Source: Adhaeribacter swui (GTDB lineage Bacteria > Bacteroidota > Bacteroidia > Cytophagales > Hymenobacteraceae). From it: a stretch of 64,000 bases of DNA. This document shows positions 1,825-61,851 of this stretch, in pieces. The position numbers and the translations under genes were made by a program. Below the pieces are notes generated by a model that made no database searches, was not told where the DNA came from, and saw only the letters and a list, made by a program, of their open reading frames with translations. The first letter of the stretch is position 1. Each line of letters opens with the position of its first letter. The stretch is from positions 2,548,585 to 2,612,584 of the forward strand of contig NZ_CP055156.1 of the NCBI RefSeq assembly GCF_014217805.1, read 5' to 3'.

Positions 1825-2036
1825 TTCTTTGGAGCCGGTTCCCGTCTTCATGCTGCGGTGCTATCTTGTTTGAGCAGGCTGAGTTTGCCTCGTGGCCGGC
1901 GGGCCTCGTTTAGCCAGTTCGGACGGTTTAGCGAACCTTGGCTCGTTGCACTGCGCCATGCCTCCTGCGTCGGCACCGGAACGCTAAAAGGTCCTCATGG
2001 CTAAACTGGTGTCAGTCGTACTTAGCTACAGCTTTT
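1825..2036 (+). repeat. Repeat A copy 1 (solo arm, class II centre)
   Basis: A single, unpaired copy of the multi-hairpin repeat between ispF and pncB. In order it has a head hairpin (GGAGCCGG/CCGTCTTC, about 1831-1849), a GC-rich stretch (GCCTCGTGGCCGGCGGGCC), and a nested stem in which GTTTAGCCA pairs with TGGCTAAAC and GGAC-TTTAGCG pairs with CGCTAAA-GTCC. The tail ends CTTAGCTACAGCTTTT. Its centre matches copy 7 closely and differs from copies 2, 6 and 8. A 60-codon open frame (1822-2004) runs through it, but it follows nucleotide-level repeat conservation, so I do not call it a gene. Confidence 0.85.
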
Positions 2037-2112
2037 CTTTTAAAAGGAGTAAAATTTTAAAAATTTAAAAAATTGCCTGATACCACCAACTAACGTAAGT
2101 ATGAAACCACCT

Positions 2113-2174
2113 GGCGCAAGTGTTAAGCAAAGCGTCACTTGTGCCCAAAGACATCAGTCAGTCTCCCGACTGAC
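2113..2174. repeat. Hairpin repeat C, tandem pair of stems
   Basis: Two adjacent hairpins: GGCGCAAGTG (2113-2122) with CACTTGTGCC (2136-2145), and GTCAGTC (2157-2163) with GACTGAC (2168-2174). The same layout, with different stem sequences, recurs at 21732-21800. Conserved parts are the TGGCGC lead-in and the AGTC-tcc-GACT core of the second stem. The rest of 2037-2264 holds an A/T-rich palindromic spacer at about 2050-2073 and a low-complexity ACTACTTACT run before the pncB end. Confidence 0.65.
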
Positions 2175-2264
2175 GTTTTACAAATTACCAGTTAATACCT
2201 AACACCTACTACTTACTACTTACTACCTCTTGCTACCTAAAAGTAAGGCTGAACTGTACAAAAG

Positions 2265-3734
2265 TTATGCTTTTTCGCCTTGGCGTAATTTTAAAATGAT
2301 TTCTAATTTTTGATTGAATAAGTTGCTTTCCAGGCCGACCGGGTACACGTGCGGATTTAAGAAACGGCGAATGGTTTCGTGCAATTGCTGAACCTGATGG
2401 CGGGCATATTGCTGTATGCTGCGGAGATCGGGGTTTTGGTAAACCTGCTTGCCTTGTTTAAAAATAGGTACCAGTAAATCCTGAAAAATAGTATTATTCG
2501 CTAAAGTTTTGCGCCGGGTAACATCGTTCGGGTCGATGAGGGTACTGGAAGGTTCTGTTTCTTCGGAATAGATCATGTCGGCTAAAAAGCCTTGTTCGTT
2601 GTAAAACCGGCGTACCTGCTGAATGCCTGGCGTGGATATTTTAGCGAGTTGTTCCGATAGTTTTAATTTGTACTCCCATTGGCCGGTTGTTAAATTGCGC
2701 AGAGCCGCTAACTTGTAAACGCCACCCAGCGCCGGCTGGTCGTAGGCAGTAACCAGTTTGGTGCCAATGCCCCAGGTATCAATGCGGGCACCTTGCAGTT
2801 TTAAACTCTGGATCAGATATTCATCGAGGTCGTTGCTGGCCACAATCGAAACATTGCTTAAACCTGCTTCATCAAAAAGCCGGCGGCCTTCTTTACTTAA
2901 ATAAGCCAAGTCGCCGGAATCGAGCCGGATACCAACCAACTCATGGCCTTGTTCGCGCAATTTTTTTGCTACTTTTACCGCTTTTTTAATGCCGGCAATG
3001 GTATTGTACGTATCCACCAAAAATACCGAATCATCCGGAAAAACGTCGGCATAAGCAGCAAAGGCATCTTGTTCTTCATCAAAACTCATGACCCAACTGT
3101 GCGCGTGTGTTCCTTTTACCGGAATGTTAAAAATTTGACCGGCCAATAAGTTAGAGGTAGCTCCCACGCCTCCAATAAATGCTGCCCGGCTGGCCGACAA
3201 AGAACCATCTGGCCCTTGTGCCCGGCGCATGCCAAATTCCATTACGGGGTCGCCCTGCGCAGCTTCTACAATACGGGTAGCTTTGGTGGCTACCAAAGTC
3301 TGGAAATTTATAATATTCAGCAAAGGCGTTTCTACGAGTTGGCATTGCAAGATAGGTCCGGAAATGCGCAGCAAAGGTTCGTTTGGGAAAACCACGGTAC
3401 CTTCCGGAATGGCAGCCACGTCGCAGGTAAAGCGCATTTGTTCGAGATACGCTAAAAAACCGGCTTCGAACAAGGGCTGGTTTTTACTGCCGCGTAAACT
3501 GCCCAGGTAAGCCGTATCTTCTGGGGTAAATTGTAAATGCTGCAAAAAATCAATGGCATCGGCTAACCCCGCCGCCACCGTATAACCGCCATTAAACGGG
3601 TTCTTCCGGAAATACAGATGAAACACGGCTTCTTGTTCGGCCAGTTTTTTTTTCCAGTAGCCCTGCGCCATGGTGAGTTGATACAAATCGGTGAGAAGGG
3701 CTAAAGATGGACGAAAACGGTCGGAGATATGCAT
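2265..3734 (-). CDS. pncB: Nicotinate phosphoribosyltransferase
   Basis: Converts nicotinate and PRPP to nicotinate mononucleotide (Preiss-Handler NAD salvage) in the cytosol. It has 489 residues, the usual length for the longer clade. The N-terminal LLTDLYQLTMAQGYW is the nicotinate phosphoribosyltransferase signature; the central EFGMRRAQGPDG loop and GTHAHSWVMSF carry PRPP and catalytic contacts; IRLDSGDLAYLS and GIGTKLVTAYDQPALGGVYKL follow. The ATG start at 3732-3734 precedes the conserved HISDRFRPSLALLTDLYQ. A promoter-like pair lies just upstream (3773-3802). NAD kinase is also in this window (30.7 kb), so the same cofactor is served by two distant genes. Identity is secure. Confidence 0.96.
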   Translation of the reverse strand: MHISDRFRPSLALLTDLYQLTMAQGYWKKKLAEQEAVFHLYFRKNPFNGGYTVAAGLADAIDFLQHLQFTPEDTAYLGSLRGSKNQPLFEAGFLAYLEQMRFTCDVAAIPEGTVVFPNEPLLRISGPILQCQLVETPLLNIINFQTLVATKATRIVEAAQGDPVMEFGMRRAQGPDGSLSASRAAFIGGVGATSNLLAGQIFNIPVKGTHAHSWVMSFDEEQDAFAAYADVFPDDSVFLVDTYNTIAGIKKAVKVAKKLREQGHELVGIRLDSGDLAYLSKEGRRLFDEAGLSNVSIVASNDLDEYLIQSLKLQGARIDTWGIGTKLVTAYDQPALGGVYKLAALRNLTTGQWEYKLKLSEQLAKISTPGIQQVRRFYNEQGFLADMIYSEETEPSSTLIDPNDVTRRKTLANNTIFQDLLVPIFKQGKQVYQNPDLRSIQQYARHQVQQLHETIRRFLNPHVYPVGLESNLFNQKLEIILKLRQGEKA

Positions 3735-3772
3735 AAGATCGTTTGATTTTTTGTTGCAGGTTCGTACGGGGG

Positions 3773-3802
3773 TAAAGGTAGTTTGGTTAATGAATTCGTA
3801 AA
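3773..3802 (-). promoter_or_regulatory. Probable Bacteroidota-type promoter of pncB
   Basis: On the minus strand TTTA (3799-3802), 18 bases, then TACCTTTA (3773-3780). Compare the family consensus TTTG-N19-TAnnTTTG. The -7 element is 38 bases before the start codon. Sequence match only. Confidence 0.4.
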
Positions 3803-3998
3803 GTAGAGGGATTTCTTGTTTTTATTTTTAATCTATGGCGCGGATTTACCTCTGTTATTTATAAATTAAATTCGTTAGTATAACAGCGGTTATTGTTTGT
3901 ATTGCAAGTTAATTCTCGTTCGCATAGCTGCGGCTATTGCTTTAATTGCTTTGTGAAGTTGTTTCATTGCTGAGGTATTTATTCTTTTTGTCTATAAA

Positions 3999-4050
3999 TA
4001 CCCTTCCGCCTACGGCACCTTCCCTAAAAACAGGGAAGGAGATGCGGGTA
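3999..4050. repeat. Hairpin repeat B, free-standing copy
   Basis: Outer TACCC/GGGTA encloses a strong stem CCTTCCCT-aaaaac-AGGGAAGG (about 4018-4039) followed by AGATGCGGGTA. A second copy in the opposite orientation lies inside repeat A copy 3 (11256-11296), where the stem reads CCTCCCCT/AGGGGAGG: one pair changed from T-A to C-G with the loop AAAAAC unchanged. Confidence 0.7.
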
Positions 4051-4189
4051 TTCTGGAATACATGAAATATCCTAACGCTAAAAATTCGCTGAACAACGGA
4101 ACAGTTTAGCGTTAATGCTTGCACCAGGAACGGCTACTTGTTGCATTGCTGGCAAGTAAAATTTTAAAAATTTAAAATTCGATACCCTC

Positions 4190-4338
4190 GCTGGCGCGAG
4201 CGTCTCGCTCGTGTCTAAAATGTGGTAGGCCTCTGGCCGGGCGAACCGATAAGCAGTAGTTAAAATTCAATCAGCTACAAAACCCCAACCGGCTAGAGGC
4301 CGGACGATAAGCATCACGAGCGTGGACGCTCGCGATAG
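4190..4338. repeat. About 150-bp imperfect palindrome with nested stems
   Basis: The left arm CGCGAGCGTC..GCTCGTG (4195-4213) is repeated inverted as CACGAGCG..GACGCTCGCG (4316-4334). Inside, GGCCTCTGGCCGG (from about 4228) faces CCGGCTAGAGGCC (from about 4289). The left outer arm is itself a hairpin of repeat C type (TGGCGC-GAGCG-tct-CGCTC-GTG). Extrusion as one long cruciform or as several hairpins are both possible. Confidence 0.75.
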
Positions 4339-4364
4339 TATGTGATGGATTAAGAACATAAAAG

Positions 4365-4483
4365 TCCCCCTTTGGAGGGGGTAGGGGGAGGATTTATGCT
4401 CTCAAACATATTCTGACAAATTCTACCTGATAAATACTCTTTGGTAAATGTAAAAAAAGCTCCCCGCCTTGGCTAAGGAGGGG
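4365..4483. repeat. Two G/C-tract hairpins
   Basis: TCCCCC-tttgga-GGGGGT followed by AGGGGGAGG (4365-4391), and CTCCCCGCCTT-ggct-AAGGAGGGG (4460-4483) followed by TTGGGGGTGG. Both resemble small intergenic repeats seen between Bacteroidota genes. No T-tract on either strand makes them convincing terminators. Confidence 0.55.
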
Positions 4484-4662
4484 TTGGGGGTGGTTGATTC
4501 TTATACTAATCTACGCAATTAACTAATTAAAAATGAGAGCCTACGAGCAGGCGGGTTTGTTCTTAGATTTTTAAATTTTTGACGGGTAAATAGCGCTGGT
4601 TTTTTTAATTTAAGGCAGTGGTTTTTAATTGCTATCCTGCTTATGAATTTTTGACCAGTGTC

Positions 4663-5313: not shown

Positions 5314-5337
5314 GATTTTTAAAAAAAAAATTATTTT

Positions 5338-7134: not shown

Positions 7135-7174
7135 AGCAGCTGTAAAATTTAAAAAATAAAAAAATGTCATAAGA

Positions 7175-7201
7175 AAGGCTGCCTTAAGGGTAGCCTTTTT
7201 T
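7175..7201 (+). terminator. Rho-independent terminator of the acidic orphan
   Basis: AAGGCTGCC pairs with GGTAGCCTT (one G-T pair) around a short TTAAG loop and is followed by a T run. Confidence 0.8.
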
Positions 7202-7554: not shown

Positions 7555-10500
7555 ATGTCAAACAAAATCACCTTACAAAAACAAATCTTAAAACGCTCCT
7601 GGTGGAGTTTATTGCTCCTGGCTTTTTACGCGTGTACCAACCTGGGGCACGAGAAAAAAGTACTGGTTTTTACACAGCCTAAAACCAGCCCCGAAGCAGC
7701 TACGGCTGGGATTACGGCACTGCAAAAATTAGCGCCTGATCACCAATTTAAAGTGGATACAGCGTTTTCCGCTTCCCGGATAACCGAAGATTCCTTGAAA
7801 AACTACGCGGCGGTGGTATTTTTAAATTCGAGCCCCGAAGCGCTGGGCCATAGTCAACAAATAGATTTAGAGCGGTTTGTACAGGCGGGCGGTAAAGTAA
7901 TTAAACCCGAGCCGGTAACTACTCCTGAAAAATTTAACGATGCGGCCTACCAGAAACAACTAGGTGCCAACATTGAAACTGAAATTGCGAAAACCGAAAA
8001 ACTCGATTACAGCAAAGCTACCGTTGCCCGCGTGCCCGAAGAAAGCCGTTTTGTGCAGCAAGTACTCGACCAAAACCTCGACGAACCCATGCAAATGACC
8101 GTGCTGGACGAAGGCAAAGTATTGTTTATCGAGCGTCGTGGTAACGTGAAACTGTATGACCCCGCAAAAAAAGCAACCCGGGTTATTTCTAAATTTAACG
8201 TGCACACCGAAGGTAATTACGAAGATGGCTTGCTGGGCGTAACCAAAGACCCGAATTTTTCAAAAAATCACTGGATTTACATTTACTACTCCCCGGAAGT
8301 AAAAGAATCTAAGCAAAACTTATCGCGGTTTACCATGATCGGCGACAGCCTGGACATGAAATCCGAAACCTTGATTATGGAGGTGCCGGTGCAACGCGAA
8401 ACCTGCTGCCACTCGGCGGGCGGTTTAGTATTTGGTCCGGAAGGTTATTTGTACATATCTACTGGCGATAACACCAGCTCTAAAGAATCCGACGGTTTCT
8501 CGCCGCTGGATGAGCGTCCGGGCCGTGGACCTTTCGATTCGCAGAAATCATCCGGTAACACCAACGATTTACGTGGTAAAATCTTACGCATCATCCCGAA
8601 AGCCGAAGGCGGTTACGATATTCCGGAAGGCAACTTGTTCCCGAAAGGCACCCCAAAAACCCGTCCCGAAATTTACGTAATGGGTACCCGCAACGCTTTC
8701 CGGTTCTCCATCGATGCTAAAACCAAATACTTGTACTGGGGCGACGTAGGCCCGGACGGTGGTAAAGACGGTCCGCAAGGCCCCCGCAGTTACGACGAGT
8801 GGAATCAGGCCCGCAAAGCCGGTAACCACGGCTGGCCGTATTTTGTGGGCGATAACAAACCGTACTCCGACTGGGATTTTGCCACTAACAAACCTGGTCC
8901 ATTGTTCGACCCGGCTCGCCCAGTAAACAAATCACCGAACAATACCGGTATGGAAGTATTACCCCCGGCGCAATTACCCATGATCTGGTACCCATACGAC
9001 GAATCGAAAGAGTTTCCGGAGTTAGGCAAAGGCTCGCGCAGCGCTATGGCCGGTCCGGTTTATTATTCCGAGATGTACGGCGATAGTAAAAAGAAATTCC
9101 CGGCGTATTACGACGGCAAATTGTTTATCTACGAATGGGCCCGCAGCTGGGTAAAAGTAGTAAGCTTCAACGAAGACGGTACTTTAAAGAAAATAGAACC
9201 GTTCCTGCCCAACACCGAAGTATTTAAACCCATTGACATGCAGTTTGGTCCGGACGGTGCCATGTATTTACTGCAATACGGCGCTAATTACTTTGCCCGT
9301 AACCCCGATGCCCGTTTGGTACGCATTGAGTATACCGAAGGTAACCGCGCTCCAGTGGCTACCATTGTAGCAGATAAACAAGTAGGAGCCGCACCGCTGC
9401 AGGTAAAACTATCGGCCAAAGAATCTTACGACTACGATAAAACTGATAAATTAACGTACGAGTGGCGCTTAACTTCTGGCGGCGAAGTAACTTCCCGCGA
9501 AGCCGAAGCTACCTTTACTTTGGATAAACCCGGGGTTTACAAGCCGGAATTGACCGTAAAAGACGACAAAGGCGAAACCACCACTACTCAAACTGAAATA
9601 AAAGTAGGTAACGAGCCGCCGCAGGTAGTAGTGGATATTACCGGCAACCGTTCGTTTTTCTTCGATAACAACACTTTTAACTATAATGTAAAGGTTAGCG
9701 ACAAAGAAGAAGGCAGCGTAGGCCAGGGAATAGATGCCAGCCAGGTATTATTGTCTTTTGATTATTTAGCGCAAGGTAAAGATTACGCGCTCATTTCGGC
9801 AGCTTCTAAGTCGGGGAATGTGGCTACCAAATTTTTAAAAGGCAAAGCCTTAATTGATGGCAGCGATTGTAAATCGTGCCACGACATCGAGAAAAAATCC
9901 ATTGGGCCGAGCTACAAAATGGTGGCGGATCGTTACGCTGCCGCCGGCGAAAATTCGGTAGGTTTTCTGGCCGATAAGATTATTAAAGGTGGTAACGGCA
10001 ACTGGGGGCATAGCTTAATGGCGGCGCACCCGCAGCACAGCAAAGCCGAAACTTCGGATATGGTTCGTTATATTTTATCGTTATCGGCTACCAACACTGC
10101 CGGAGGCAGCATGCCATTGCAAGGTAAATTTACCACCATAGAGCACATAGGTACCGGCGAAGAAGGTTCGTATATCATTACGGCCAGCTACCGCGATAAA
10201 GGCAGTGAGTTTACCGGCCCATTAACCGATCGTAAAACCTTAGTGTTGCGCCACCCCAAAGTACAAGCCGAAGATTACGACGGCTACCAGCAAATAAACA
10301 CGCAGCGTCCGCCTAATACGGGTGGTTTAGGTTACGTAGATAATATCCGGAACAATTCCTGGATTTCCTTCAAAAACATTGACCTGACGGGTATTGAAAG
10401 TTTAGTTTTCCGGGTTAATGCTAATGGTAATCGCTACCCCGGTGGTACTATTGAGGTGCACAGCGGCTCGGTAAATGGCCCGGTAGTGGCTACGGCGGTA

Positions 10501-10698
10501 ATTAAAAATACCAACGTAGAAGCTAAAGGCCAGTTAATGTCCAACGACCCTCGCTGGACTGAGGTAGCGGCTTCGGTTACCAACGCCGGTACTAAACCGC
10601 AAGATTTGTACGTGGTGTTCCAAAACAAAGAAGTTACTAACCGCGACTTGTTCTTACTGGATTGGATTAACTTTAACAAGAAAAATCCTCGGTCTTAG
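7555..10698 (+). CDS. Multidomain lipoprotein: PQQ-type sugar dehydrogenase, PKD, cytochrome c, CBM6-like
   Basis: 1047 residues. A signal peptide ends at a lipobox-like AFYAC (Cys27). Residues 33-115 resemble the first half of a ThuA domain (KKVLVFTQPK..SPEA..FVQAGGKVI), and then the sequence passes directly to a glucose/sorbosone dehydrogenase beta-propeller (about 170-590; CCHSAGGLVFGPEGYLYIST, NHGWPYFVGDNK, FGPDGAMYLLQYG). A PKD domain follows (597-688), then a cytochrome c with heme site CKSCH at 772-776 and probable axial Met822 in HSLMAAHP, and a carbohydrate-binding module from about 904 (QAEDYDGYQQ..DWINF). A periplasmic or surface sugar oxidase passing electrons to its own heme is likely. 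The ThuA part appears shortened compared with full ThuA domains of about 200 residues. The gene stands alone with its own terminator. Confidence 0.9.
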   Translation: MSNKITLQKQILKRSWWSLLLLAFYACTNLGHEKKVLVFTQPKTSPEAATAGITALQKLAPDHQFKVDTAFSASRITEDSLKNYAAVVFLNSSPEALGHSQQIDLERFVQAGGKVIKPEPVTTPEKFNDAAYQKQLGANIETEIAKTEKLDYSKATVARVPEESRFVQQVLDQNLDEPMQMTVLDEGKVLFIERRGNVKLYDPAKKATRVISKFNVHTEGNYEDGLLGVTKDPNFSKNHWIYIYYSPEVKESKQNLSRFTMIGDSLDMKSETLIMEVPVQRETCCHSAGGLVFGPEGYLYISTGDNTSSKESDGFSPLDERPGRGPFDSQKSSGNTNDLRGKILRIIPKAEGGYDIPEGNLFPKGTPKTRPEIYVMGTRNAFRFSIDAKTKYLYWGDVGPDGGKDGPQGPRSYDEWNQARKAGNHGWPYFVGDNKPYSDWDFATNKPGPLFDPARPVNKSPNNTGMEVLPPAQLPMIWYPYDESKEFPELGKGSRSAMAGPVYYSEMYGDSKKKFPAYYDGKLFIYEWARSWVKVVSFNEDGTLKKIEPFLPNTEVFKPIDMQFGPDGAMYLLQYGANYFARNPDARLVRIEYTEGNRAPVATIVADKQVGAAPLQVKLSAKESYDYDKTDKLTYEWRLTSGGEVTSREAEATFTLDKPGVYKPELTVKDDKGETTTTQTEIKVGNEPPQVVVDITGNRSFFFDNNTFNYNVKVSDKEEGSVGQGIDASQVLLSFDYLAQGKDYALISAASKSGNVATKFLKGKALIDGSDCKSCHDIEKKSIGPSYKMVADRYAAAGENSVGFLADKIIKGGNGNWGHSLMAAHPQHSKAETSDMVRYILSLSATNTAGGSMPLQGKFTTIEHIGTGEEGSYIITASYRDKGSEFTGPLTDRKTLVLRHPKVQAEDYDGYQQINTQRPPNTGGLGYVDNIRNNSWISFKNIDLTGIESLVFRVNANGNRYPGGTIEVHSGSVNGPVVATAVIKNTNVEAKGQLMSNDPRWTEVAASVTNAGTKPQDLYVVFQNKEVTNRDLFLLDWINFNKKNPRS

Positions 10699-10755: not shown

Positions 10756-10822
10756 ATTTAGAAAAGTCTCAAATCAATTATTAAAAAACTATACTAAACG
10801 TTAGTTTCCTTAGCAGGACCAG

Positions 10823-11030
10823 TTCTTTGAAGCCTTTTCAAGCCTCCATGCTCTGGTGCTATCTAGTTTGAACAGTAACCCGTTTGCCTCCTGGCTGGCA
10901 GGCCCCGTTTGGCTCTTCCGGGCTGTCTAAGCTTGTTTTGTTCGTGCCTCACAATGCCTCGTGCCTCGGCACCACAACCTTAGAAGGTCCTCCACAGCCA
11001 AACTGATGTCGTATGCTTTTAGCTACTGTT
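10823..11030 (+). repeat. Repeat A copy 2 (left arm of pair 1, class I centre)
   Basis: Head TTCTTTGAAGCCTTTTCAAG, variable part CTCTGGTGCTATCTAGTTTG, module AACAGTAACCC, GC box CCTCCTGGCTGGCAGGCC, and nested stems GTTTGGCT/AGCCAAAC and CTAAG/CTTAG. The apex contains CGTGCCTCGGCACC. The tail is TTTAGCTACTGTTTTT. Its centre matches copies 6 and 8. Confidence 0.85.
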
Positions 11031-11067
11031 TTTCGAGCTCATACCGCATCTTGTGTAGAGTAGGAAA

Positions 11068-11103
11068 TTAATCATATTAGCTGCATCCAGCTAATATGAT
11101 TAA
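11068..11103. repeat. Perfect central hairpin of pair 1
   Basis: A 16-bp perfect stem (TTAATCATATTAGCTG and its complement) with loop CATC. The sequence is unrelated to the central hairpin of pair 2. No T-run follows as in a terminator. Confidence 0.85.
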
Positions 11104-11143
11104 CAGGATTTATATTGTTGATTTTGTTTCTGTCTTCTAAACC

Positions 11144-11390
11144 AAACGGTAGCTAAATGCAACTGACGCCAGTTTGGCTGTGGAGCACCTGCCAGGGTCT
11201 CGGTTCTGCACAGCAGAATTCCGCAGACGGAGTCGAGGAAAGGGAAAAAAGTAATTACCGCATCTCCTCCCCTGTTTTTAGGGGAGGTCCCGCAGGGGGA
11301 GGGGTAAACGAGGCCCGCCGGCCAGGAGGCAAAACTTGAAATCTCAAACTAGATAGCACCAGAGCCTGGAGGCTTGAAAAGGCTTCAAAT
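11144..11390 (-). repeat. Repeat A copy 3 (right arm of pair 1, class III centre, carries an insertion)
   Basis: Read on the minus strand: TTTGAAGCCTTTTCAAGCC, GGTGCTATCTAGTTTGA, module GATTTCAAG, then the GC box. The central stem is interrupted by a hairpin repeat B copy (11256-11296). The apex retains TTCTGC-tgt-GCAGAA, and the tail ends GCATTTAGCTACCGTTT. Because of the insertion it is about 35 bases longer than other arms. Confidence 0.82.
11256..11296 (-). repeat. Hairpin repeat B nested in repeat A copy 3
   Basis: On the minus strand TACCCCTCCCCCTGCGG, then CCTCCCCT-aaaaac-AGGGGAGG, then AGATGCGGTA. Same order, loop and flanks as the copy at 3999-4050. Compared with copy 9, it replaces the 5' half of the central stem of the host repeat. 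Confidence 0.72.
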
Positions 11391-11419
11391 ATCAGCCATA
11401 AAATTTTATTAAAAACAGC

Positions 11420-11488: not shown

Positions 11489-12331
11489 TCAGACCTTCAA
11501 CTTGTTCAAATACTCAATGTTATGTTTTACGCTATCCATAGGGTTGCCGGCGTATTCTTCCTGCTCTACAAAGTAGTATTTCAAACCCGATTTTTCGGCA
11601 TTCTGGAACAAGCGGGCAATGTTTAAGTTGCCTTTGCCAAACTCGGTACTAACCGGTTCTTCTTTCTTCATGTCTTTTAAATGCCACAACGGAAAACGGT
11701 TGGGGTAGCGGGTAAAATAATCGATGGGGTCGAAGCCGGACGCAACTACCCAGCCCAGGTCCAGTTCCCATTTTACCAGGTTCGGGTCCGTTTCGGCTAG
11801 TAATAAATCGTATAAAACTTTGCCTTCTACTTTCTCAAATTCATATTCGTGGTTGTGGTAACCAAATACTAACCCGGCTTTTTTACATTCTTCGCCGGCT
11901 TTGTTAAACTGTTCGGCTACTTTCTGGTAATTGCTAATGGTTTGTCCTGAACTTGGCAGCGAGGAGCACACCAAATATTGCTGACCGGTTTCGGCGGCAT
12001 CGGCTACGGTTTTCTGCCAGTCTTTATCGAGGTGTACGTGGCCGCTCCGCAGGTTCATGCCGAGGTCGTGCACCAATTTTTTAAAATCTTTGGGCGTATA
12101 GCCGTAGTAATTGCCCTTCGCGCTTCGCGCCGATTCGAGTTCTTTATAGCCTAAGGCGGCTAATTTTTTTAAAGTATTGGGCACACTAGCTTCCAGTTCT
12201 TTCCGGACGGTATATAACTGAATGCCCGCTGCTTTGGGTTTAGCAACAGTGGCGTGAGTTAAATAAGGCAGAGCAGCGGCGCCCAAAGTTAAAGCACCCG
12301 CTTGTTTTAAAAAGTTGCGACGATTTATCAT
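11489..12331 (-). CDS. Secreted sugar phosphate isomerase/epimerase-like TIM-barrel protein
   Basis: 280 residues from the ATG at 12329-12331, which directly begins a Tat-type signal (MINRRNFLKQAGALTLGAAA) with the twin arginines at 4-5; an upstream in-frame start at 12382 would only add 17 unstructured residues. The mature part is an AP-endonuclease-2/xylose-isomerase-like barrel: AAGIQLYTVRKELEAS, YKELESARSAKG, GHVHLDKDW, LVFGYHNHEYEFE, VKWELDLGWVVASGFDP and FPLWHLKDMKKEE, ending in YYFVEQEEY. The His and Glu residues in YHNHEYEF and ELDLGW are the usual metal ligands. Such periplasmic proteins often act on keto-sugars next to Gfo/Idh/MocA dehydrogenases, and one lies divergently at 13.9 kb. 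The exact substrate is unknown. Confidence 0.9.
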   Translation of the reverse strand: MINRRNFLKQAGALTLGAAALPYLTHATVAKPKAAGIQLYTVRKELEASVPNTLKKLAALGYKELESARSAKGNYYGYTPKDFKKLVHDLGMNLRSGHVHLDKDWQKTVADAAETGQQYLVCSSLPSSGQTISNYQKVAEQFNKAGEECKKAGLVFGYHNHEYEFEKVEGKVLYDLLLAETDPNLVKWELDLGWVVASGFDPIDYFTRYPNRFPLWHLKDMKKEEPVSTEFGKGNLNIARLFQNAEKSGLKYYFVEQEEYAGNPMDSVKHNIEYLNKLKV

Positions 12332-12754
12332 AAATAAAGTGTAAAGATTTTTTGATTTTTTAGTTACCAGCACTGGGTTCAATTATAACGATAAGTCCTA
12401 TCTAAGTATTTACTGTAAAAATAACGCGCGTATACGACCTAAATAGCTCCACCATTTTGCTCACCAAAGGCAATATACTAATAAAGCATCATTAAAAAGG
12501 AAAGCCACTGCTGACAGATTTGCCAGGTACGAAATAGGAGGCATTAAATGCGTAGGTACGCCGGATAGTTGCTGCAATATTACTAACAGAAAGTAATAGC
12601 TCATTGATTTTTGTTTAAAGGTTTAAGCAAAATATTCAAAATTTTAAAAATATTGTTTTAGTGCCAGTAATAACTGTTTAATTTACAATAAAAATAAAGT
12701 AACTTCGGTAGATTTTGTCAGCAACTGGCAGGTTCTACAAGACCTTAATTACCA
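12332..12754. other. 423-bp divergent intergenic region
   Basis: Promoter region for the sugar isomerase (minus) and the FGE-like gene (plus). The only signal I can point to is the promoter at 12677-12707. No repeat A or RNA gene is present. Confidence 0.5.
12677..12707 (+). promoter_or_regulatory. Probable Bacteroidota-type promoter of the FGE-like gene
   Basis: TTTA (12677-12680), 19 bases, then TAACTTCG (12700-12707), against the consensus TTTG-N19-TAnnTTTG. It is 47 bases before the ATG at 12755. Confidence 0.4.
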
Positions 12755-21483: not shown

Positions 21484-21612
21484 AAGAGAATTTTAAATTT
21501 TTAAAAATCTTGTCCGGAAACAAGGGTAAAGGTAATAGCTTTTACTTACGTAATAGTACAATCAGGAGTAAGCAATGTTTATCTTTTCATAAGCTTAGGA
21601 TTACTACTCGTA

Positions 21613-21661
21613 TTATTTGGAGCCGGTTCCCGTCTCCATATTGCGGTGCTATCTGGTTTGT
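21613..21661 (+). repeat. Repeat A copy 4 (head fragment only)
   Basis: Only the first 49 or so bases of the repeat remain: TTATTTGGAGCCGG-ttc-CCGTCTCC (head hairpin) and TGCGGTGCTATCTGGTTTG. The body is missing; unrelated sequence and hairpin repeats follow. Confidence 0.72.
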
Positions 21662-21731
21662 AAATCATGAAACTGGCCTTCATATGGCCCTTCTCTGGCT
21701 CAAGTTTTTATCCACCCTTCCTCCATCATCT

Positions 21732-21800
21732 GGCGCAAGTTTTCAAACTTGGGCCTACTGACAAGGTAAAGTCTCCGACTTTACTCCGGCTTTAGCCGGA
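21732..21800. repeat. Hairpin repeat C array: three consecutive stems
   Basis: GGCGCAAGTTT/AAACTTGGGCC (21732-21754), GTAAAGTC-tcc-GACTTTAC (21766-21784) and TCCGGC-ttta-GCCGGA (21785-21800) follow one another almost without spacers. The first two have the same order as at 2113-2174 with changed stem sequences. Confidence 0.7.
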
Positions 21801-21863
21801 ACCTTGATCTGCTTTGCCAAGCTGCTAAAAAGAAAATTTTTAAAATTTAATATGTTTCCGTAC

Positions 21864-22063
21864 TTACTTGGAGTCTTTTCAAGCCTCCAGGCTTAGGTGC
21901 TATCTAGCTTGCTTGCTTCAAGTTTTGCCTCATGGCCGACGGGCCTCGTTTGGCTCTTTCGGGCGGTCTAAGCTTCCTTTACTCCTATTGTCGGAATTCT
22001 GCTGCGCAGAACCAGAACCTTAGAAGGCCCTCAACAGCCAAACTGGTGTCAGTTGCTTTTAGT
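21864..22063 (+). repeat. Repeat A copy 5 (solo arm, mixed centre)
   Basis: Head TTACTTGGAGTCTTTTCAAG, variable part TTAGGTGCTATCTAGCTTG, module TTGCTTCAAG, GC box CCTCATGGCCGACGGGCC. The lower central stem (GGGC..TCTAAG/CTTAGAAGGCCC) is class I, but its apex (TTCTGC-tgc-GCAGAA) is that of class III, so it is a mosaic. The tail is GTCAGTTGCTTTTAGTAG. Confidence 0.83.
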
Positions 22064-22176
22064 AGTGTCCGGTTGCTTTTTTGATGAAAGGGGTTTTTAT
22101 AGAAAAATTTTCTTTTCTAAGTCAAAGAAATACGGATTTTTAAAAGTACTAAAATGAAAATTATCATTTGCATTAT

Positions 22177-52244: not shown

Positions 52245-52264
52245 AATATCTATTTTTTAATTTT

Positions 52265-54551: not shown

Positions 54552-54576
54552 TTGATAGACGATAGCCGATGGTCCA

Positions 54577-54725: not shown

Positions 54726-56036
54726 ATGTCAAATATTGTTGCAATTGTGGGACGCCCCAACGTGGGCAAATCCACCCTTTTTAACCGCCTGGTAGGCGAG
54801 CGTAAAGCCATTATGGATAACCAAAGCGGCGTTACCCGCGACCGTCATTACGGCTACGGCGAATGGATCGGTAAAAACTTTACCGTGATTGATACCGGCG
54901 GTTACGTGCACGGCTCCGCCGATATATTCGAAGGCGAAATCCGGAAGCAAGTAGAACTGGCTATTAAAGAAGCTACCGTTATTTTGTTTATGGTGGATGT
55001 AGAAGAAGGCGTGCACAGCCTCGACGAAGAATTTGCCAACGTGCTGCGCCGCTCCGATAAGCCCATTTACATTGTGGCCAATAAAGCCGATACCAACTTA
55101 AAAGCGCAGTTTATCGGTGATTTTTATGCTTTAGGTTTAGGCGAAGAAATATTTCCGGTATCATCGGCGAGTGGTTCCGGCACTGGCGATTTGCTCGACG
55201 AAGTAGTAAAACATTTTCAAACGGAAGATGCTGAGAATCCTGATGAAGGTATTCCCCGGTTAGCGGTGGTAGGCCGGCCTAACGTAGGTAAATCGTCGTT
55301 CGTAAACTTGCTGCTCGGCGAAGAGCGCAACATTGTTACCGATATTGCCGGCACTACCCGCGATTCCATTAACTCGCGCTACAATTCCTTCGGAATGGAG
55401 TTTATTATCACCGATACTGCCGGGTTGCGCCGTAAAACTAAAGTGCACGAAGATGTTGAGTTTTACTCGGTGCTGCGGTCCATTAAAGCCATCGAAGAAT
55501 CGGATGTGTGCATTGTAATTCTGGATGCTACCCGCGGCCTGGAAGCTCAGGACATGAACATTATTAGCCTCGCCGATAAAAACCGCAAAGGCATTGTAAT
55601 ACTGGTAAACAAATGGGACTTGGTAGAAAAAGAGACCAACACCATGAAAGAATACGAAGAACAGCTCCGCGAAAAACTGGCGCCGCTCACGTACATGCCC
55701 ATCATTTTTACTTCGGTAATAACCAAACAACGGGTACACAAAGCCATTGAAACGGCTTACCAGGTGTATAAAAACAAAACACAGAAAATATCTACTTCCA
55801 AGCTCAACGACGTGATGCTAAAAGAAATTGAAGCCTATCCGCCGCCGGCCATTAAAGGTAAATTCGTGAAAATTAAATACGTGACGCAATTACCTACCCA
55901 TAACCCCACGTTTGCGTTTTTCTGTAATTTGCCGCAGTACATCAAAGAAAGCTATACCCGTTTCCTGGAAAATAAACTCCGCAAGAATTTTGGTTTTGAA
56001 GGGGTACCGATTAATCTGGTGTTCCGGAAAAAGTAA
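54726..56036 (+). CDS. der: GTPase Der (EngA)
   Basis: Double GTPase for 50S subunit assembly. 436 residues. The first G domain: VAIVGRPNVGKSTLFNRLVG, VIDTGGYVHGS, YIVANKADTN; the second: LAVVGRPNVGKSSFVNLLLG, ITDTAGLRRKTKVHEDVEFY, VILVNKWDLVEK; and a KH-like C-terminus (YPPPAIKGKFVKIKYVTQLP, TFAFFCNLPQYIKESYTRFL). All standard. A terminator follows at 56107-56148. Confidence 0.97.
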   Translation: MSNIVAIVGRPNVGKSTLFNRLVGERKAIMDNQSGVTRDRHYGYGEWIGKNFTVIDTGGYVHGSADIFEGEIRKQVELAIKEATVILFMVDVEEGVHSLDEEFANVLRRSDKPIYIVANKADTNLKAQFIGDFYALGLGEEIFPVSSASGSGTGDLLDEVVKHFQTEDAENPDEGIPRLAVVGRPNVGKSSFVNLLLGEERNIVTDIAGTTRDSINSRYNSFGMEFIITDTAGLRRKTKVHEDVEFYSVLRSIKAIEESDVCIVILDATRGLEAQDMNIISLADKNRKGIVILVNKWDLVEKETNTMKEYEEQLREKLAPLTYMPIIFTSVITKQRVHKAIETAYQVYKNKTQKISTSKLNDVMLKEIEAYPPPAIKGKFVKIKYVTQLPTHNPTFAFFCNLPQYIKESYTRFLENKLRKNFGFEGVPINLVFRKK

Positions 56037-56148: not shown

Positions 56149-56227
56149 TATGTTTTAAATTTTGTTAATAGCATTTAATAGATCTCTTAAACCTGCTAAC
56201 GAAAAAAACTAATTGCTTTAATGGTAG

Positions 56228-56440
56228 TTCTTTGGAGCCGGGGACCGGCTCCATTTACTGGTGCTATCTAATTTGATGAGTAACCCGTTTGCCTCATGGC
56301 CGGCAGGCCCCGTTTGGCTCTTCCGGGCTGGTCTAAGCTTGTTTTGTTCGTGCCTCACAATGCCTCGTGCCTCGGCACCACAACCTTAGAAGGCCCTTCA
56401 CAGCCAAACTGATGTCGTTTACTTGTAGCTCCTACTACGG
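56228..56440 (+). repeat. Repeat A copy 6 (left arm of pair 2, class I centre)
   Basis: Head hairpin GGAGCCGG-gga-CCGGCTCC is perfect here. Then ACTGGTGCTATCTAATTTGA, module TGAGTAACCC, GC box CATGGCCGGCAGGCCCC and the class I centre (GGTCTAAGCTTG..CAACCTTAGAAGGCCC) with P1 GTTTGGCT/AGCCAAAC. Confidence 0.85.
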
Positions 56441-56486
56441 CTTTTCTGATTTATTTAGTTTGAGAATATAAATAGATTGTAAAAAA

Positions 56487-56529
56487 TATCATGTAGTAGG
56501 CTACAAGTATTGTAGCCTACTACATGATA
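56487..56529. repeat. Perfect central hairpin of pair 2
   Basis: A 20-bp perfect stem beginning TATCATGTAGTAGGCTACAA, loop GTA. The sequence differs completely from the central hairpin of pair 1. Confidence 0.88.
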
Positions 56530-56563
56530 CTATACTTCCTAATTCTGTGTTCTCTTTCCGATT

Positions 56564-56773
56564 AAACCGGAGCCAAGCGCAACTGATACCAGTTTGGCTC
56601 TAGAGGACCTTTTAGCGTTCCGGTGCCGACGCAGGAGGCATGGCGCAGTGTAACGAGCCAAGGTTCGCTAAACAGTCCGAAAGAGCCAAACGAGGCCCGC
56701 CGGCCACGAGGCAAACTCAGCCTGTTCAAATAAGATGGAACCTGTGAATGGAGACTTAAAAAGGCTCCAAAGA
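56564..56773 (-). repeat. Repeat A copy 7 (right arm of pair 2, class II centre)
   Basis: On the minus strand: head TTCTTTGGAGCCTTTTTAAG, variable part CACAGGTTCCATCTTATTTG, module ACAGGCTGAG, GC box CGTGGCCGGCGGGCC, P1 GTTTGGCTCT/AGAGCCAAAC, and the class II centre with TTTAGCG/CGCTAAA as in copy 1. A 71-codon minus-strand frame (56562-56777) through it resembles the frame in copy 1, because the DNA is repeated. Confidence 0.85.
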
Positions 56774-56818
56774 ACAACCTTATGTATCTGATAAAATTGT
56801 TTTTTATTTCCTAAAAGC

Positions 56819-57352
56819 TTATTTTATAAAATAATCCACTACTTCCTGCCAATTATTCAACCGAGTATACCCTTCCACGTGCGCATTATGCGGCGCGGTA
56901 AAAAGCAAACCGGTGCCGCTAAACGTTTTTAAATTTCGTTCCAGGTCATCGATTAAGTAATCCGCGTGAATAATGCTTTTGTCGCCGCAAAAAACAATGT
57001 TTTTCCAGGTGATAAAGGGCAGGTGCTGTTTAATCCAGTTGTATTTGGGCGTAAACGAGTGTTCAAATTCCTGAGCGGCGGTGGTAATAAAAACTTCGTG
57101 GTGTTGGTGCAATTGCTCTACGGCTTGCAGGGCACCGTCAATCGCGGCTAAATCTTTAAAAAAATCCGGCCGGTGCGGCCACGATTTTACCGTAGCCAAA
57201 CGCTCTGACGGCACTACTTTTTCTAAATTATTACCGGGCTGCCGGATAGCCGAAAGATCCTCGTTAAATTCCTGTTGATATATTTCAATAAATCGACCAA
57301 TGGAATCGGTCATGACTTCGTCCATATCAATGGCAATGCGTTTTTTATTCAT
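56819..57352 (-). CDS. 5'(3')-deoxyribonucleotidase-like HAD protein
   Basis: 177 residues of the NT5C family, which dephosphorylates deoxyribonucleoside monophosphates. RIAIDMDEVMTDSIGRFIEI gives the nucleophile Asp (9) and partner Asp (11). Later blocks are VFITTAAQEFEHSFTPKYNW (motif II region), IVFCGDKSIIHADYLIDDLE (Asp pair) and GLLFTAPHNA. It is small and intact. On the minus strand a TACCTTTA element at 57397-57404 lies about 45 bases upstream. The gene diverges from the nucleotidyltransferase gene. Confidence 0.92.
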   Translation of the reverse strand: MNKKRIAIDMDEVMTDSIGRFIEIYQQEFNEDLSAIRQPGNNLEKVVPSERLATVKSWPHRPDFFKDLAAIDGALQAVEQLHQHHEVFITTAAQEFEHSFTPKYNWIKQHLPFITWKNIVFCGDKSIIHADYLIDDLERNLKTFSGTGLLFTAPHNAHVEGYTRLNNWQEVVDYFIK

Positions 57353-57651
57353 AGGGCAAAAAGCAGGATAAGTAAGGTGTACTTAGTGTAATGTGGTAAA
57401 GGTATTTAAACTTAGCAAAAGCGAATAAGTTAAATTTTTAAACTTAATAAGGTAAAATTTTCCTGCCGACCAAAGATAAATACAAAAAAGATGGTTTCGG
57501 AAGCCTATCCGGATAACAAATCTTTCGGAAATAAGTAAACGTACTACTTTGCCACAGTATACCGCAAAAAAGCTGTTTTAACGAGCTGGCAAAGAATTGC
57601 AAAAAGCCCGTTTAAGGCAAATCTGTTTACGTTTAAGCGAACACAACTTAC
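57353..57651. other. 299-bp divergent intergenic region
   Basis: Holds the -7-like element of the 5'-nucleotidase gene and an A/T spacer near 57432-57443. No repeat or RNA gene seen. Confidence 0.4.
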
Positions 57652-58392: not shown

Positions 58393-58394
58393 CC

Positions 58395-59183: not shown

Positions 59184-59203
59184 GAAATTTTTTAAATTTT
59201 AAC

Positions 59204-59245
59204 AAAACAGCAAAGGCAAGTTACTTCACTTGCCTTTGCTGTTTT
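59204..59245 (+). terminator. Terminator after the phosphoesterase gene
   Basis: AAAACAGCAAAGGCAAGT and its exact complement form an 18-bp stem with loop TACTTC and T's. It separates the nucleotidyltransferase pair from xdhC and mocA. Confidence 0.85.
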
Positions 59246-59370
59246 ACCAGGAACTAAATTACCGCGTACGTACTCAAAACAATCAACTAAATGCGGTTGT
59301 TTTTCTCTTGTTTAAATATTGGTGCTTGCCTTATACCGGGGTATTCGCTTATATTTAAGTATAATTTACC

Positions 59371-60555
59371 ATGAAAGAAATACAAGATATAGTACGGGCT
59401 TATGGGGTAGCCTGTCAGCAAAACAAGCGTACTGCCCTGGCTACGGTGGTGCAGGTAGAAGGATCGGCGTACCGGCGGCCCGGTGCCCGCATGTTGGTAA
59501 CCGAAGACGGCGAATTAACGGGCGCTATTAGTGGCGGCTGCCTGGAAGGCGATGCCCTTCGCAAAGCCCGGTTGGTTATGGCCCAGCAAAAAGCCATGTT
59601 AGTTACCTACGATACCACCGACGACGATGATTCTAAGCTGGGTGTGGGTTTGGGTTGCAACGGGGTTATTCAGATTTTAATTGAGCCCATCGTGGCCGAA
59701 AACCCGGCTAATCCGATTGCTTTGCTCAGCGCAGTTTTAAGTCAGCGCCAACAAGCCGTGGTAGTTACTTTGTTTTCGCTGCAAAACCGCAAGGGCGTGC
59801 AGCCCGGCACGTGCTTGCTGCTCCCCGAAAAAGCCGAAGCACAAGGTAATGTGCAACCGGCCGCATTACAAGAGTTATTGGCCCAGGAGGCCGTACAGGT
59901 TTTAAAAAATCAAAAATCGGTTATCCGCAATTACCAACTGGAAGATAAGGTTATCAGCGCTTTTGTGGAGTATTTGCACCCGCCGGTTTCGGTAGTGGTT
60001 CTGGGCGCCGGCAACGATATTCAGCCACTAGTGCAAATGGCTAGTATTCTGGGTTGGTTAGTTACCGTAATCGATGGCCGCACCAATTACGCGGTAAAAT
60101 CCCGTTTCCCGTTGGCTAACCAAGTTATTTTGGCTAAACCGCCGCAGGTTCTGGATTTAATTTCGGTAGATGGGCAAACCGTTTTCCTGCTCATGACGCA
60201 TAATTACAATTACGACATCGCCATGCTGCGCCAGTTAATTCCGCTCGCAGTGCCGTACGTGGGCGTGTTGGGTCCGAAAAAGAAATTAAACCAAATGCTA
60301 TCGGAGTTACAAGAAGAAGGCCTGGCATTTACCCCCGACCAGATGCAGAAAGTGTACGGACCTTTAGGTCTAGATATCGGTGCCGAAACCCCCGAAGAAA
60401 TTGCTTTATCGGTAATCTCTGAAATTAAGGCCGTATTAACGAATAAACCCGGAACCTCGCTGCGCCACAAACCCGAAGCCATTCACGACCGCACGACCAT
60501 TGATACGCCGGTGCGGGTTACCACGCCGCAACCCGTTTCGGATGCCGTAGCGTAA
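59371..60555 (+). CDS. xdhC: XdhC/CoxI family molybdenum-enzyme maturation protein
   Basis: 394 residues. The N-terminal XdhC domain has ALATVVQVEGSAYRRPGARM and ISGGCLEGDALRKARLVM, the SGGCxE motif whose Cys is the likely cofactor-binding residue. The C-terminal Rossmann part begins VVVLGAGNDIQPLVQMASI. XdhC binds molybdenum cofactor, helps sulfurate it and delivers it to xanthine dehydrogenase-type enzymes. The following mocA starts 14 bases after its stop. The hydroxylase subunits are not in the window. Confidence 0.94.
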   Translation: MKEIQDIVRAYGVACQQNKRTALATVVQVEGSAYRRPGARMLVTEDGELTGAISGGCLEGDALRKARLVMAQQKAMLVTYDTTDDDDSKLGVGLGCNGVIQILIEPIVAENPANPIALLSAVLSQRQQAVVVTLFSLQNRKGVQPGTCLLLPEKAEAQGNVQPAALQELLAQEAVQVLKNQKSVIRNYQLEDKVISAFVEYLHPPVSVVVLGAGNDIQPLVQMASILGWLVTVIDGRTNYAVKSRFPLANQVILAKPPQVLDLISVDGQTVFLLMTHNYNYDIAMLRQLIPLAVPYVGVLGPKKKLNQMLSELQEEGLAFTPDQMQKVYGPLGLDIGAETPEEIALSVISEIKAVLTNKPGTSLRHKPEAIHDRTTIDTPVRVTTPQPVSDAVA

Positions 60556-60568
60556 ATTTTTAAATTTT

Positions 60569-61198
60569 ATGGAAAAAACCGGCTTGGTATTATTAGCAGC
60601 GGGTGCGTCGGTGCGTTTGGGTAGCCCTAAACAAAACTTAGCATTTCAAGGGCAAACCTTACTGCAGCACGCTGTACAGGCCGCCCGCCAATCCGGTTGT
60701 TCCCCGGTTGTGGTGGTACTGGGCGCGAACGCCGAGGCATTACTCCCGCAGTTAAACTTTCCGGAAATTAAAATTTTTAAAAATCCGGATTGGGAAGAAG
60801 GAATGGGAGCCTCCGTGCGTAACGGAGTACAGAACTTACTGCAATCCGCGCCCGATCTGGAAAGTATATTGCTCATGACCTGCGACCAACCTTTTGTTTC
60901 GGGTAAATTATTGCAGCAATTAATCGCGGAAAAACAGAAAAATTTAAAAAAAATAATTGCTTGCGCTTACCAGGATACCCTTGGCACGCCCGTGCTGTTC
61001 GATAAGCAATTCTTCCCGGACTTACTGAATCTGCAAGGCGCACATGGCGCGAAAAAGTTACTTTTTAAATATCCCGAGCAAGTGGGTAGCATTCCGTTTG
61101 AGTTAGGCGGTTTTGATATCGATACTCCCACGGATTACCAAACGCTGCAGCATTATGTAGCTAAACTGGCGGATGATTCTACTAAGAACCAGGAGTAG
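60569..61198 (+). CDS. mocA: MocA-like molybdenum cofactor nucleotidyltransferase
   Basis: 209 residues with the GT-A-like nucleotidyltransferase core: GLVLLAAGASVRLGSPKQNL (nucleotide loop and Lys), NPDWEEGMGASVRNGVQNLL, LLMTCDQPFVSGKLLQQLI (DQP metal motif), and GTPVLFDKQFFPDLLNLQGA with GFDIDTPTDY. It adds CMP to molybdopterin, giving the MCD form used by xanthine dehydrogenase-type enzymes (MocA), though a GTP-using relative cannot be excluded. It directly follows xdhC. Confidence 0.93.
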   Translation: MEKTGLVLLAAGASVRLGSPKQNLAFQGQTLLQHAVQAARQSGCSPVVVVLGANAEALLPQLNFPEIKIFKNPDWEEGMGASVRNGVQNLLQSAPDLESILLMTCDQPFVSGKLLQQLIAEKQKNLKKIIACAYQDTLGTPVLFDKQFFPDLLNLQGAHGAKKLLFKYPEQVGSIPFELGGFDIDTPTDYQTLQHYVAKLADDSTKNQE

Positions 61199-61266
61199 TT
61201 AAACCAGAACAACTTCCGGTAGTTTTATAGAGTACCTGAAAATAGTAGTATTCTGTGTAGGAGCTA

Positions 61267-61480
61267 TTCTTTGGAGTCTTTGCAAGCCTCCATGCCATGG
61301 TTCCATCGCGTTTGAACGGGCTGAGTTTGCCTCCTGGCCGGCGGGCCCCGTTTGGCTCTTCCGGGCTGGTCTAAGCTTGTTTTGTTCGTGCCTCACAATG
61401 CCCTCGTACCTCGGCACCACAACCTTAGAAGGCCCTTCACAGCCAAACTGATGTCAGCTTTTCTTAGCCGCGGCTTTTCT
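61267..61480 (+). repeat. Repeat A copy 8 (left arm of pair 3, class I centre)
   Basis: Head TTCTTTGGAGTCTTTGCAAG, then the pair-specific block, module ACGGGCTGAG (as in copies 1 and 7), GC box CCTCCTGGCCGGCGGGCC, and the class I centre. It combines a module from one class with a centre from another. The tail has CTTAGCCGCGGCTTTTCTG, matching copy 6. Confidence 0.85.
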
Positions 61481-61538
61481 GACTCGTATAGTTTAGATGG
61501 GGAAATGTAGAAATTATATTTACTATCTTCATTAAATA

Positions 61539-61566
61539 CTAGAAGCAACGAGAATGAGCTTTCTAG
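61539..61566. repeat. Central hairpin of pair 3 (imperfect)
   Basis: CTAGAAGC (61539-61546) with GCTTTCTAG (61558-61566), one base bulged. It is weaker than the central hairpins of pairs 1 and 2. A further imperfect stem GCACTAC/GTAGTAGC is near 61619-61644. Confidence 0.6.
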
Positions 61567-61640
61567 TTCTGTTTTCTTCGCAATAAATGTTAATGAAAGT
61601 TAGCTAAAACAATTGAGTAGCACTACTCCAAAAGTGGTAG

Positions 61641-61851
61641 TAGCAATAGCTAAGCGTAACTGGCATCAGTTTGGCTGTGGAGCACCTGCTAGGGTTCCGG
61701 TTTTGCGCAGCAAAATTCCGCAGACGCAGTCGAGGAAAGAGAGTCTAGCAAGTGCGGCAGAGCCAAACGGGGCTCGCCGGCCAGGAGGCAAAACTTGAAA
61801 TATCAAACGCGATGGAACCATGGCATGGAGACTTGAAAAGGCTCCAAAGAA
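61641..61851 (-). repeat. Repeat A copy 9 (right arm of pair 3, class III centre)
   Basis: On the minus strand: TTCTTTGGAGCCTTTTCAAG, pair-specific block, module TATTTCAAG, GC box CCTCCTGGCCGGCGAGCC, P1 GTTTGGCT/AGCCAAAC, P2 GCACTTGCTAG/CTAGCAGGTGC and apex TTTTGC-tgc-GCAAAA. This is the intact class III centre against which the insertion in copy 3 can be seen. Confidence 0.85.

What the first reader, a model, noticed from the sequence alone, without database searches (positions are those of the whole stretch)
1825..61851. A dense family of about 210-bp multi-hairpin repeats (repeat A) with nine members in 64 kb
Copies: 1825-2036, 10823-11030, 11144-11390 (minus), 21613-21661 (fragment), 21864-22063, 56228-56440, 56564-56773 (minus), 61267-61480, 61641-61851 (minus). 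All share head TTCTTTGGAG.C, a GGTGCTATC or GGTTCCATC block, GC box CCTGGCCGGCGGGCC, a nested central stem and a TTAGCTAC tail. None has coding capacity or a nearby transposase. I do not recognise it as a named element. Seen directly: repetition and shared order. Inferred: mobility or RNA role.
Basis: partly seen in the sequence, partly recalled or inferred. Interest (0 to 1): 0.75.

Follow-up and report, generated by a model that had tools for sequence, protein, structure and literature searches.

The report
Folded-DNA repeat family in Adhaeribacter
The window carries copies of a scattered, non-coding repeat found between genes, whose nested hairpins appear to be preserved as folded DNA rather than as RNA, which points to a mobile or structural DNA element read by a still unknown enzyme.

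Summary
In detail: eight full copies and one head fragment, at five loci. The genome (an unnamed Adhaeribacter) has at least about 117 copies, none inside a called gene. The core recurs in 69 of 150 sampled genomes of the bacterial family (four of six genera); in a class sample it is in 3 of 395, the own genome and two from other families. No Rfam family matches.

The three window pairs are head-out units of 551-589 bp. Such units recur, spacer included, at unrelated sites. In a relative, 4 of 6 orthologous spacers lack the repeat.

The hairpins are strongly supported by covariation (33 of 40 pairs change on both sides; 35 of 40 across genera), yet G-U pairs are almost absent (1.2-1.5%, against 12.8% in RNase P from the same bacterial family) and rarer than A-C. 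The fold therefore looks kept as DNA, not RNA.

Best reading: a REP/BIME-like mosaic, non-autonomous mobile DNA repeat, unusually large and multi-hairpin. The mobilising enzyme is unknown: the repeat neither tracks nor lies beside the REP-associated tyrosine transposase in the loci tested, and no target duplications were found. New variant of a known kind.

The parts
1823..2037 (+). solo copy of repeat A
   Evidence: cmsearch 219.9 bits; the orthologous site in relative G006 also holds a copy
10821..11394 (.). head-out pair unit: arm 10821-11034 (+), spacer, arm 11141-11394 (-), between convergent genes 7555-10698(+) and 11489-12373(-)
   Evidence: the spacer holds an inverted repeat with 16-bp arms
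11253..11306 (.). module C hairpin embedded in the minus-strand arm, also found at 3999-4052
21612..21668 (+). head-only fragment of repeat A
   Evidence: nhmmer model positions 2-58
21730..21861 (+). module B (REP-like hairpins) and AT-rich palindrome directly upstream of the next head
   Evidence: read
21862..22074 (+). solo copy of repeat A in a B-A composite
   Evidence: cmsearch 205.9 bits
56226..56776 (.). head-out pair unit: arm 56226-56440 (+), spacer, arm 56561-56776 (-), between convergent genes 54726-56036(+) and 56819-57352(-)
   Evidence: a pair is also present at the orthologous site in G006
56487..56529 (.). palindrome in the spacer of the pair (20-bp arms, 3-nt loop)
61265..61853 (.). 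head-out pair unit: arm 61265-61479 (+), spacer, arm 61638-61853 (-)
   Evidence: aligns over 585 nt (79%) to the unit at G000:C3:715477, spacers included, without flank homology

Best explanation
Repeat A is the core module of a REP/BIME-like mosaic family: a non-autonomous, intergenic, dispersed DNA repeat whose nested hairpins are conserved as Watson-Crick DNA structure. Shown: copies exist solo, as head-out (tail-to-tail) pairs with a spacer, and as composites with other hairpin modules (B, C, E); some pair units recur with their spacer at unrelated sites; stems covary in a DNA-like way; the same site can carry different stem versions in two species. Inferred: a structure-reading enzyme acts in trans on the folded single strand (for example on the lagging-strand template) to copy or insert the units, and recombination between copies swaps arms and stem modules. 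Convergent gene spacers are favoured and divergent (promoter) spacers avoided because insertions are least and most harmful there. The enzyme is not identified.
For: Covariation: 33 of 40 pairs change on both sides in 109 own-genome rows and 35 of 40 in 52 matches from four genera, 0 of 500 shuffles as high, and far above slid controls. DNA rather than RNA: G-U 1.2% and A-C 2.0% of paired cells (94 of 109 own-genome rows), G-U 1.5% and A-C 2.5% across genera, against G-U 12.8% and A-C 0.7% in RNase P of 21 genomes of the same bacterial family. A pyrimidine-pyrimidine mismatch is kept inside the own-genome head hairpin in 91 of the 107 rows with letters at both positions. Dispersal: 18 of 378 spacer pairs are linked, 8 of these over 100 nt or more, involving 8 of 28 spacers; 7 of the 18 linked units align in one piece of 530-590 nt that ends near the heads; 4 of 6 alignable orthologous spacers in G006 lack the repeat. 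Intergenic: none inside a called gene at the 83 of 85 sites with both neighbours called (60-nt tolerance, own ORF caller); convergent 35 of 83 against 121 of 686 spacers (p 1.7e-6), divergent 4 of 83 against 152 of 686 (p 6.6e-5). Orientation: of 30 multi-copy sites with both neighbours, 28 hold a head-out pair, the other 2 a head fragment ahead of a full copy; 13 of 13 close pairs in the printed match lists of three relatives are head-out. Stem versions differ at one orthologous site. IS attraction, a habit of REPs: 13 of 13 fetched contig ends of A. rhizoryzae lie inside an IS4-family element next to an A-E-C composite.
Against: No target duplications (longest shared flank word 5.95 against 5.84 shuffled for 41 singles, 5.24 against 5.22 for 25 pairs). 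No enzyme: the REP-associated tyrosine transposase query matches 94 of 150 family genomes, in all six genera including the two without repeat A, and is not found in G008, G021 and G064, which do have the repeat; 0 of 30 fetched transposase loci, some in genera without the repeat, carry the core within 1.5 kb. Arms of one pair are no more alike (0.674, 27 pairs) than arms of different pairs (0.674). The head mismatch is own-lineage only: heads of G001, G002, G004 and G007 form a stem without it and heads in other genera are not alike. Module C disrupts the main stem in 15 of 109 rows, which I left out of the 94-row count. Most spacers (20 of 28) have no long match to another. Intergenic flanks were too diverged to read an exact empty site.
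Confidence: 0.6

Rival explanations
1. The palindromic structure is kept by mutation, not by recognition: template switching between hairpin arms and gene conversion between copies perfects the arms together, so two-sided changes arise without intermediates, and the copies are passive.
For: Two-sided changes outnumber one-sided ones (452 to 39 own genome, 485 to 19 across genera, against 355 to 71 in RNase P); stem versions differ at the same orthologous site; arms of a pair are as different as unrelated arms.
Against: A pyrimidine-pyrimidine mismatch is kept in the own-genome head hairpin (91 of 107 rows), which arm-copying would remove, though related species lack it. Some junction bases are conserved across genera while stems vary. 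Orientation and context are non-random.
Confidence: 0.2
2. It is an RNA element: a 3'-UTR or intercistronic structure, or a small RNA, transcribed from either strand.
For: Conserved multi-hairpin fold. 26 of 33 co-directional solo copies are antisense to the genes, so an mRNA would mostly carry one strand. The tail carries a short T-run.
Against: G-U pairs 1.2-1.5% on the element strand; read on the other strand (A-C here) 2.0-2.5%; against 12.8% in RNase P. Little conservation beyond about 6 nt upstream of the head. In the window, terminator-like hairpins lie between the genes and two of the three pairs (read by eye). No Rfam match.
Confidence: 0.1
3. The paired copies are long terminal inverted repeats of a foldback MITE of a classical (DDE) transposon, and solo copies are its remnants.
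For: 28 of 30 multi-copy sites are head-out pairs; several whole units are homologous between sites.
Against: No target duplication; arms within a pair not more alike than between pairs; own-genome spacers of 87-399 nt are too short for a transposase. The IS4-family element in A. rhizoryzae sits in module C of a composite; its flanking pieces are 77-93% identical between copies while the IS looks nearly identical by eye, so it is read as a guest.
Confidence: 0.1

Closest known systems
REP / BIME (repetitive extragenic palindromes and bacterial interspersed mosaic elements; PMC2817692 passages, PMC3733652 abstract and passages)
   Same: Extragenic, of the order of 100 copies, imperfect palindromes, solo and inverted dimers with spacers, mosaics of several modules, targets for insertion sequences (PMC1525189 abstract; here).
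   Different: REPs are described as 20-40 bp. Here the unit is ~210 bp with eight helices in the own-genome model (nine in the cross-genus one), with a core fold of about 125 nt conserved between genera while stems vary. I noticed no conserved GT[AG]G foot but ran no test for it.
Atypical REP-like structures flanking subclass 2.6 TnpA-REP genes of Bacteroidetes (PMC6006769, section 25 and passages)
   Same: Bacteroidetes; atypical structures repeated elsewhere in the genome. The own genome has a REP-associated tyrosine transposase with the YIHQNP motif.
   Different: That gene's flanks carry another hairpin repeat, and 0 of 30 such loci carry the core of repeat A.
Integron attC sites (recalled)
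   Same: A folded single DNA strand with variable stem sequence and conserved architecture is what the enzyme reads.
   Different: Repeat A is dispersed singly or in pairs, larger, with several hairpins; no integrase was sought.

Membership tests
REP/BIME | Extragenic, high-copy, palindromic repeats | tested here: met
   117 copies in the sampled regions, none inside a called gene at 83 of 85 sites; covariation
REP/BIME | Unit of 20-40 bp with one hairpin | tested here: not met
   ~210 bp, 40 pairs in 8 helices
REP/BIME | Occurs as inverted dimers and mosaics with other modules | tested here: met
   28 of 30 multi-copy sites are head-out pairs; B and C modules
RAYT-associated REP | Copies flank the REP-associated tyrosine transposase gene | tested here: not met
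   0 of 30 fetched loci within 1.5 kb; nearest copies about 7 kb from the own gene
RAYT-associated REP | Presence tracks the transposase | tested here: not met
   Transposase in all six genera, repeat in four; G008, G021 and G064 have the repeat and no transposase match at E<=1e-8
Rfam RNA family | Match to a curated covariance model | tested here: not met
   No match at gathering score in the window and nine loci nor at E<=10 for one copy
Structured RNA | G-U pairs tolerated in covarying stems | tested here: not met
   1.2-1.5% against 12.8% in RNase P
MITE / classical transposon derivative | Target site duplication | tested here: not met
   No signal in 41 singles and 25 pairs
Integron attC | Cassette array and IntI integrase | not tested
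   No integrase search made
HUH-type mobilised element | Single-strand cleavage at the hairpin by an HUH enzyme | not testable with these tools
   Needs biochemistry

The most novel reading that the evidence does not exclude
A folded DNA domain of 125-210 nt, conserved between bacterial genera the way structured RNAs are (fixed architecture and some fixed junction bases, freely changing Watson-Crick stems), read by an unknown structure-specific DNA-processing enzyme distinct from the known REP transposases.
Probability: 0.35. Interest if true: 0.8.

Novelty: new variant of a known kind. Interest (0 to 1): 0.6.

Why it matters
Large covarying folds are usually taken as evidence of functional RNA. 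This family covaries as strongly but nearly without G-U pairs, so it suggests a sequence-only way to tell DNA folds from RNA folds, and warns that some RNA-looking intergenic repeats may be DNA elements. If an enzyme reads this fold, it would be a new single-strand DNA processing system with up to around a hundred natural substrates per genome in environmental bacteria.

Tried and rejected
RNA motif: Rfam searches were empty, and the folding energies of two single copies are not special.

RAYT mobilisation: rejected as the simple answer.

Target duplications and inverted flank matches: none. Spacer of pairs as a universal palindrome: only a few of 28 spacers have a strong one. Solo copies as broken pairs: 16 of 55 show spacer-like words downstream against 5 upstream, but many look like other short repeats, so undecided. 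Autonomous version with a transposase between two arms: suspected from contig ends of A. rhizoryzae, dropped after reading uninterrupted composites. Replication-strand bias: 35 of 54 solo copies by a coarse GC-skew proxy, p 0.04, weak, not used. Named-genome distribution: pattern scan empty (the tool says near relatives may be left out); a protein scan named the genus, but 63 of its loci searched with R1 gave one chance-level match (E 0.066) and 52 searched with R2 gave none. Flanks of two outlying Cytophagales copies hold what look like ordinary metabolic genes (judged by eye).

Literature: searches listed no report of this family that I recognised. Only open-licence PMC papers are held and only the top rows were seen, so absence is not proof.
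Full report
What is there. The nine listed places are real: eight full copies (cmsearch E 3.7e-62 to 1.3e-33) and one head fragment. A reversed-sequence control gives no hit at E<=10. They form five loci: a solo copy (1823-2037), three head-out pairs (10821-11394, 56226-56776, 61265-61853), and a head fragment plus solo copy with a second repeat module between them (21612-22074). In the genome (6.23 Mb, three contigs) one search lists 128 matches, all on contig C3, 9 of them covering only the central hairpins, with 150 of 1,469 candidates scored. nhmmer counts 117 copies, 102 full, in 1.415 Mb taken around those matches. Both are lower bounds.

Host and range. All 8 genomes of the genus in the sample (own included) match. 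With a core model (R2), 69 of 150 genomes of the bacterial family match, in 4 of 6 genera, with at most 23 candidates scored per genome. In a class sample 3 of 395 match: the own genome and two from other families, with 8 candidates scored per genome. With deeper scoring those two hold 1 and 5 matches and ten other genomes none. The two outlying loci first found show, by eye, a similar order of stems, and both lie antisense to their flanking genes; the four further loci were not read.

Anatomy. Head hairpin; a GGTGCTATC or GGTTCCATC block; a GGCC hairpin; a long nested stem ending in two terminal hairpins; a TTAGCTAC tail with a short T-run. Modules: C replaces part of the main stem in some copies (27 hits, 17 inside copies). 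B, a set of REP-like hairpins, lies within 380 nt upstream of the head in 23 of 48 solo but only 3 of 55 paired copies. In some G001 and G002 copies an A-E-C composite continues past the tail.

Fold. On 109 own-genome rows 94.5% of cells pair, 33 of 40 pairs show two-sided change and the covariation score is 0.308 against 0.115 shuffled, 0 of 500 as high. On 52 matches from other genomes of four genera (a few are partial, opposite-strand matches) the figures are 94.2%, 35 of 40 and 0.541 against 0.145. These alignments are fitted to the model, and related sequences can beat such shuffles; a free MAFFT alignment of 49 copies still gives 21 of 40 two-sided. The key test is. RNase P from 21 genomes of the same bacterial family (21 of 30 loci fetched; RNAalifold structure) has G-U in 12.8% and A-C in 0.7% of paired cells. 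Repeat A has 1.2% and 2.0% (94 of 109 rows, after leaving out 15 with module C), 1.5% and 2.5% across genera, and 0.8% and 1.2% in the free alignment. Neither strand looks like RNA. In well-conserved pairs 24 single-sided changes make G-T and 43 make A-C (p 0.027), while loops show 65 and 82 of the matching kinds, so the small A-C excess may only be mutation bias. The own-genome head hairpin keeps a pyrimidine-pyrimidine mismatch in 91 of 107 rows and a Watson-Crick pair in 16; heads of G001, G002, G004 and G007 lack it, and heads of other genera are not alike.

Context. By my own ORF caller, 83 of 85 sites have both neighbours called, and none lies inside a gene (60-nt tolerance): 35 convergent, 44 co-directional, 4 divergent, against 121, 413 and 152 spacers of 100 nt or more in the same DNA. 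Among spacers of 400 nt or more, 32 of 53 convergent, 43 of 139 co-directional and 4 of 63 divergent ones are occupied. Solo copies in co-directional spacers are antisense to the genes in 26 of 33 (p 0.0013). Of 30 multi-copy sites, 28 hold a head-out pair and 2 a head fragment ahead of a full copy in the same direction. All 13 close pairs in the printed match lists of three relatives (40, 40 and 30 matches) are head-out.

Dispersal and turnover. Among 28 spacers, 18 of 378 pairs are linked at E<1e-2, 8 of them over 100 nt or more (8 spacers in three groups); the other links are short. Seven of the 18 linked units align in one piece of 530-590 nt, for example 79% over 585 nt between the window unit at 61265 and C3:715477, with no flank homology. 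In G006, six own-genome sites have alignable flanks on both sides: two hold a copy and four do not. Where both species hold copies, the stems differ in blocks, which suggests exchange between copies. Arms of a pair are as different as arms of different pairs (0.674 and 0.674). No target duplications appear, and the flanks are too diverged to read an exact empty site.

Candidate enzyme. The own genome has a REP-associated tyrosine transposase (NCBIfam NF047646) with other hairpins in its flank. Its sequence matches 94 of 150 family genomes at E<=1e-8, in all six genera (two matches in the own genome, one listed). G008 has 71 repeat matches and no such gene by either search. None of 30 fetched loci, some in genera without the repeat, carries the core within 1.5 kb. 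PMC6006769 (section 25 and passages) describes atypical repeated structures beside subclass 2.6 genes of Bacteroidetes; repeat A is not shown to be these.

Guest insertion sequence. In A. rhizoryzae (G002) 13 of 13 contig ends that I fetched because a copy lay near them end inside an IS4-family element (NF033590, E 2.1e-37, 129 bits against a cut-off of 160 for this partial protein) inserted in module C. Aligned flanking pieces are 77-93% identical between copies while the IS looks nearly identical by eye. REPs are known IS targets (PMC1525189, abstract).

Verdict. A REP/BIME-like mosaic family with an unusually large DNA fold. Dispersal, intergenic bias and DNA-type covariation are shown; a structure-reading enzyme and single-strand mobilisation are inferred.

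Noticed in passing
window 21730-21861 and 26 places upstream of heads in the own genome: Module B: hairpins whose base (GGCGC...GTGCC) resembles, by eye, the hairpins beside the own REP-associated tyrosine transposase; possibly a separate REP family joined to repeat A.
   Followed up: partly
window 3999-4052, 11253-11306; 27 hits in the 1.415 Mb fetched: Module C, a palindrome found alone and inside repeat A copies; insertion place of an IS4-family element in A. rhizoryzae.
   Followed up: partly
own genome, 120 hits in the 1.415 Mb fetched: AT palindrome CTAAATTTTTAAAAATTTAG: no hit inside a called gene, 28 of 120 within 400 nt of a repeat A copy.
   Followed up: no
L248:873-1249 (G002): Three tandem head blocks, the last continuing into a full copy.
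   Followed up: no
own genome copies 1998791, 2537412, 3498563, 3657122 and G006 5897479: A small hairpin (GATTCGCAGAATC or like) inserted at about the same place in the 3' arm of several copies.
   Followed up: no
G106 and G120 copies, L300-L319: In another genus the core lies in a longer mosaic that often has TTGTCATTTCGAAC...GAGAAATC and GGGACAGGT...ACCTGTCC repeats.
   Followed up: no
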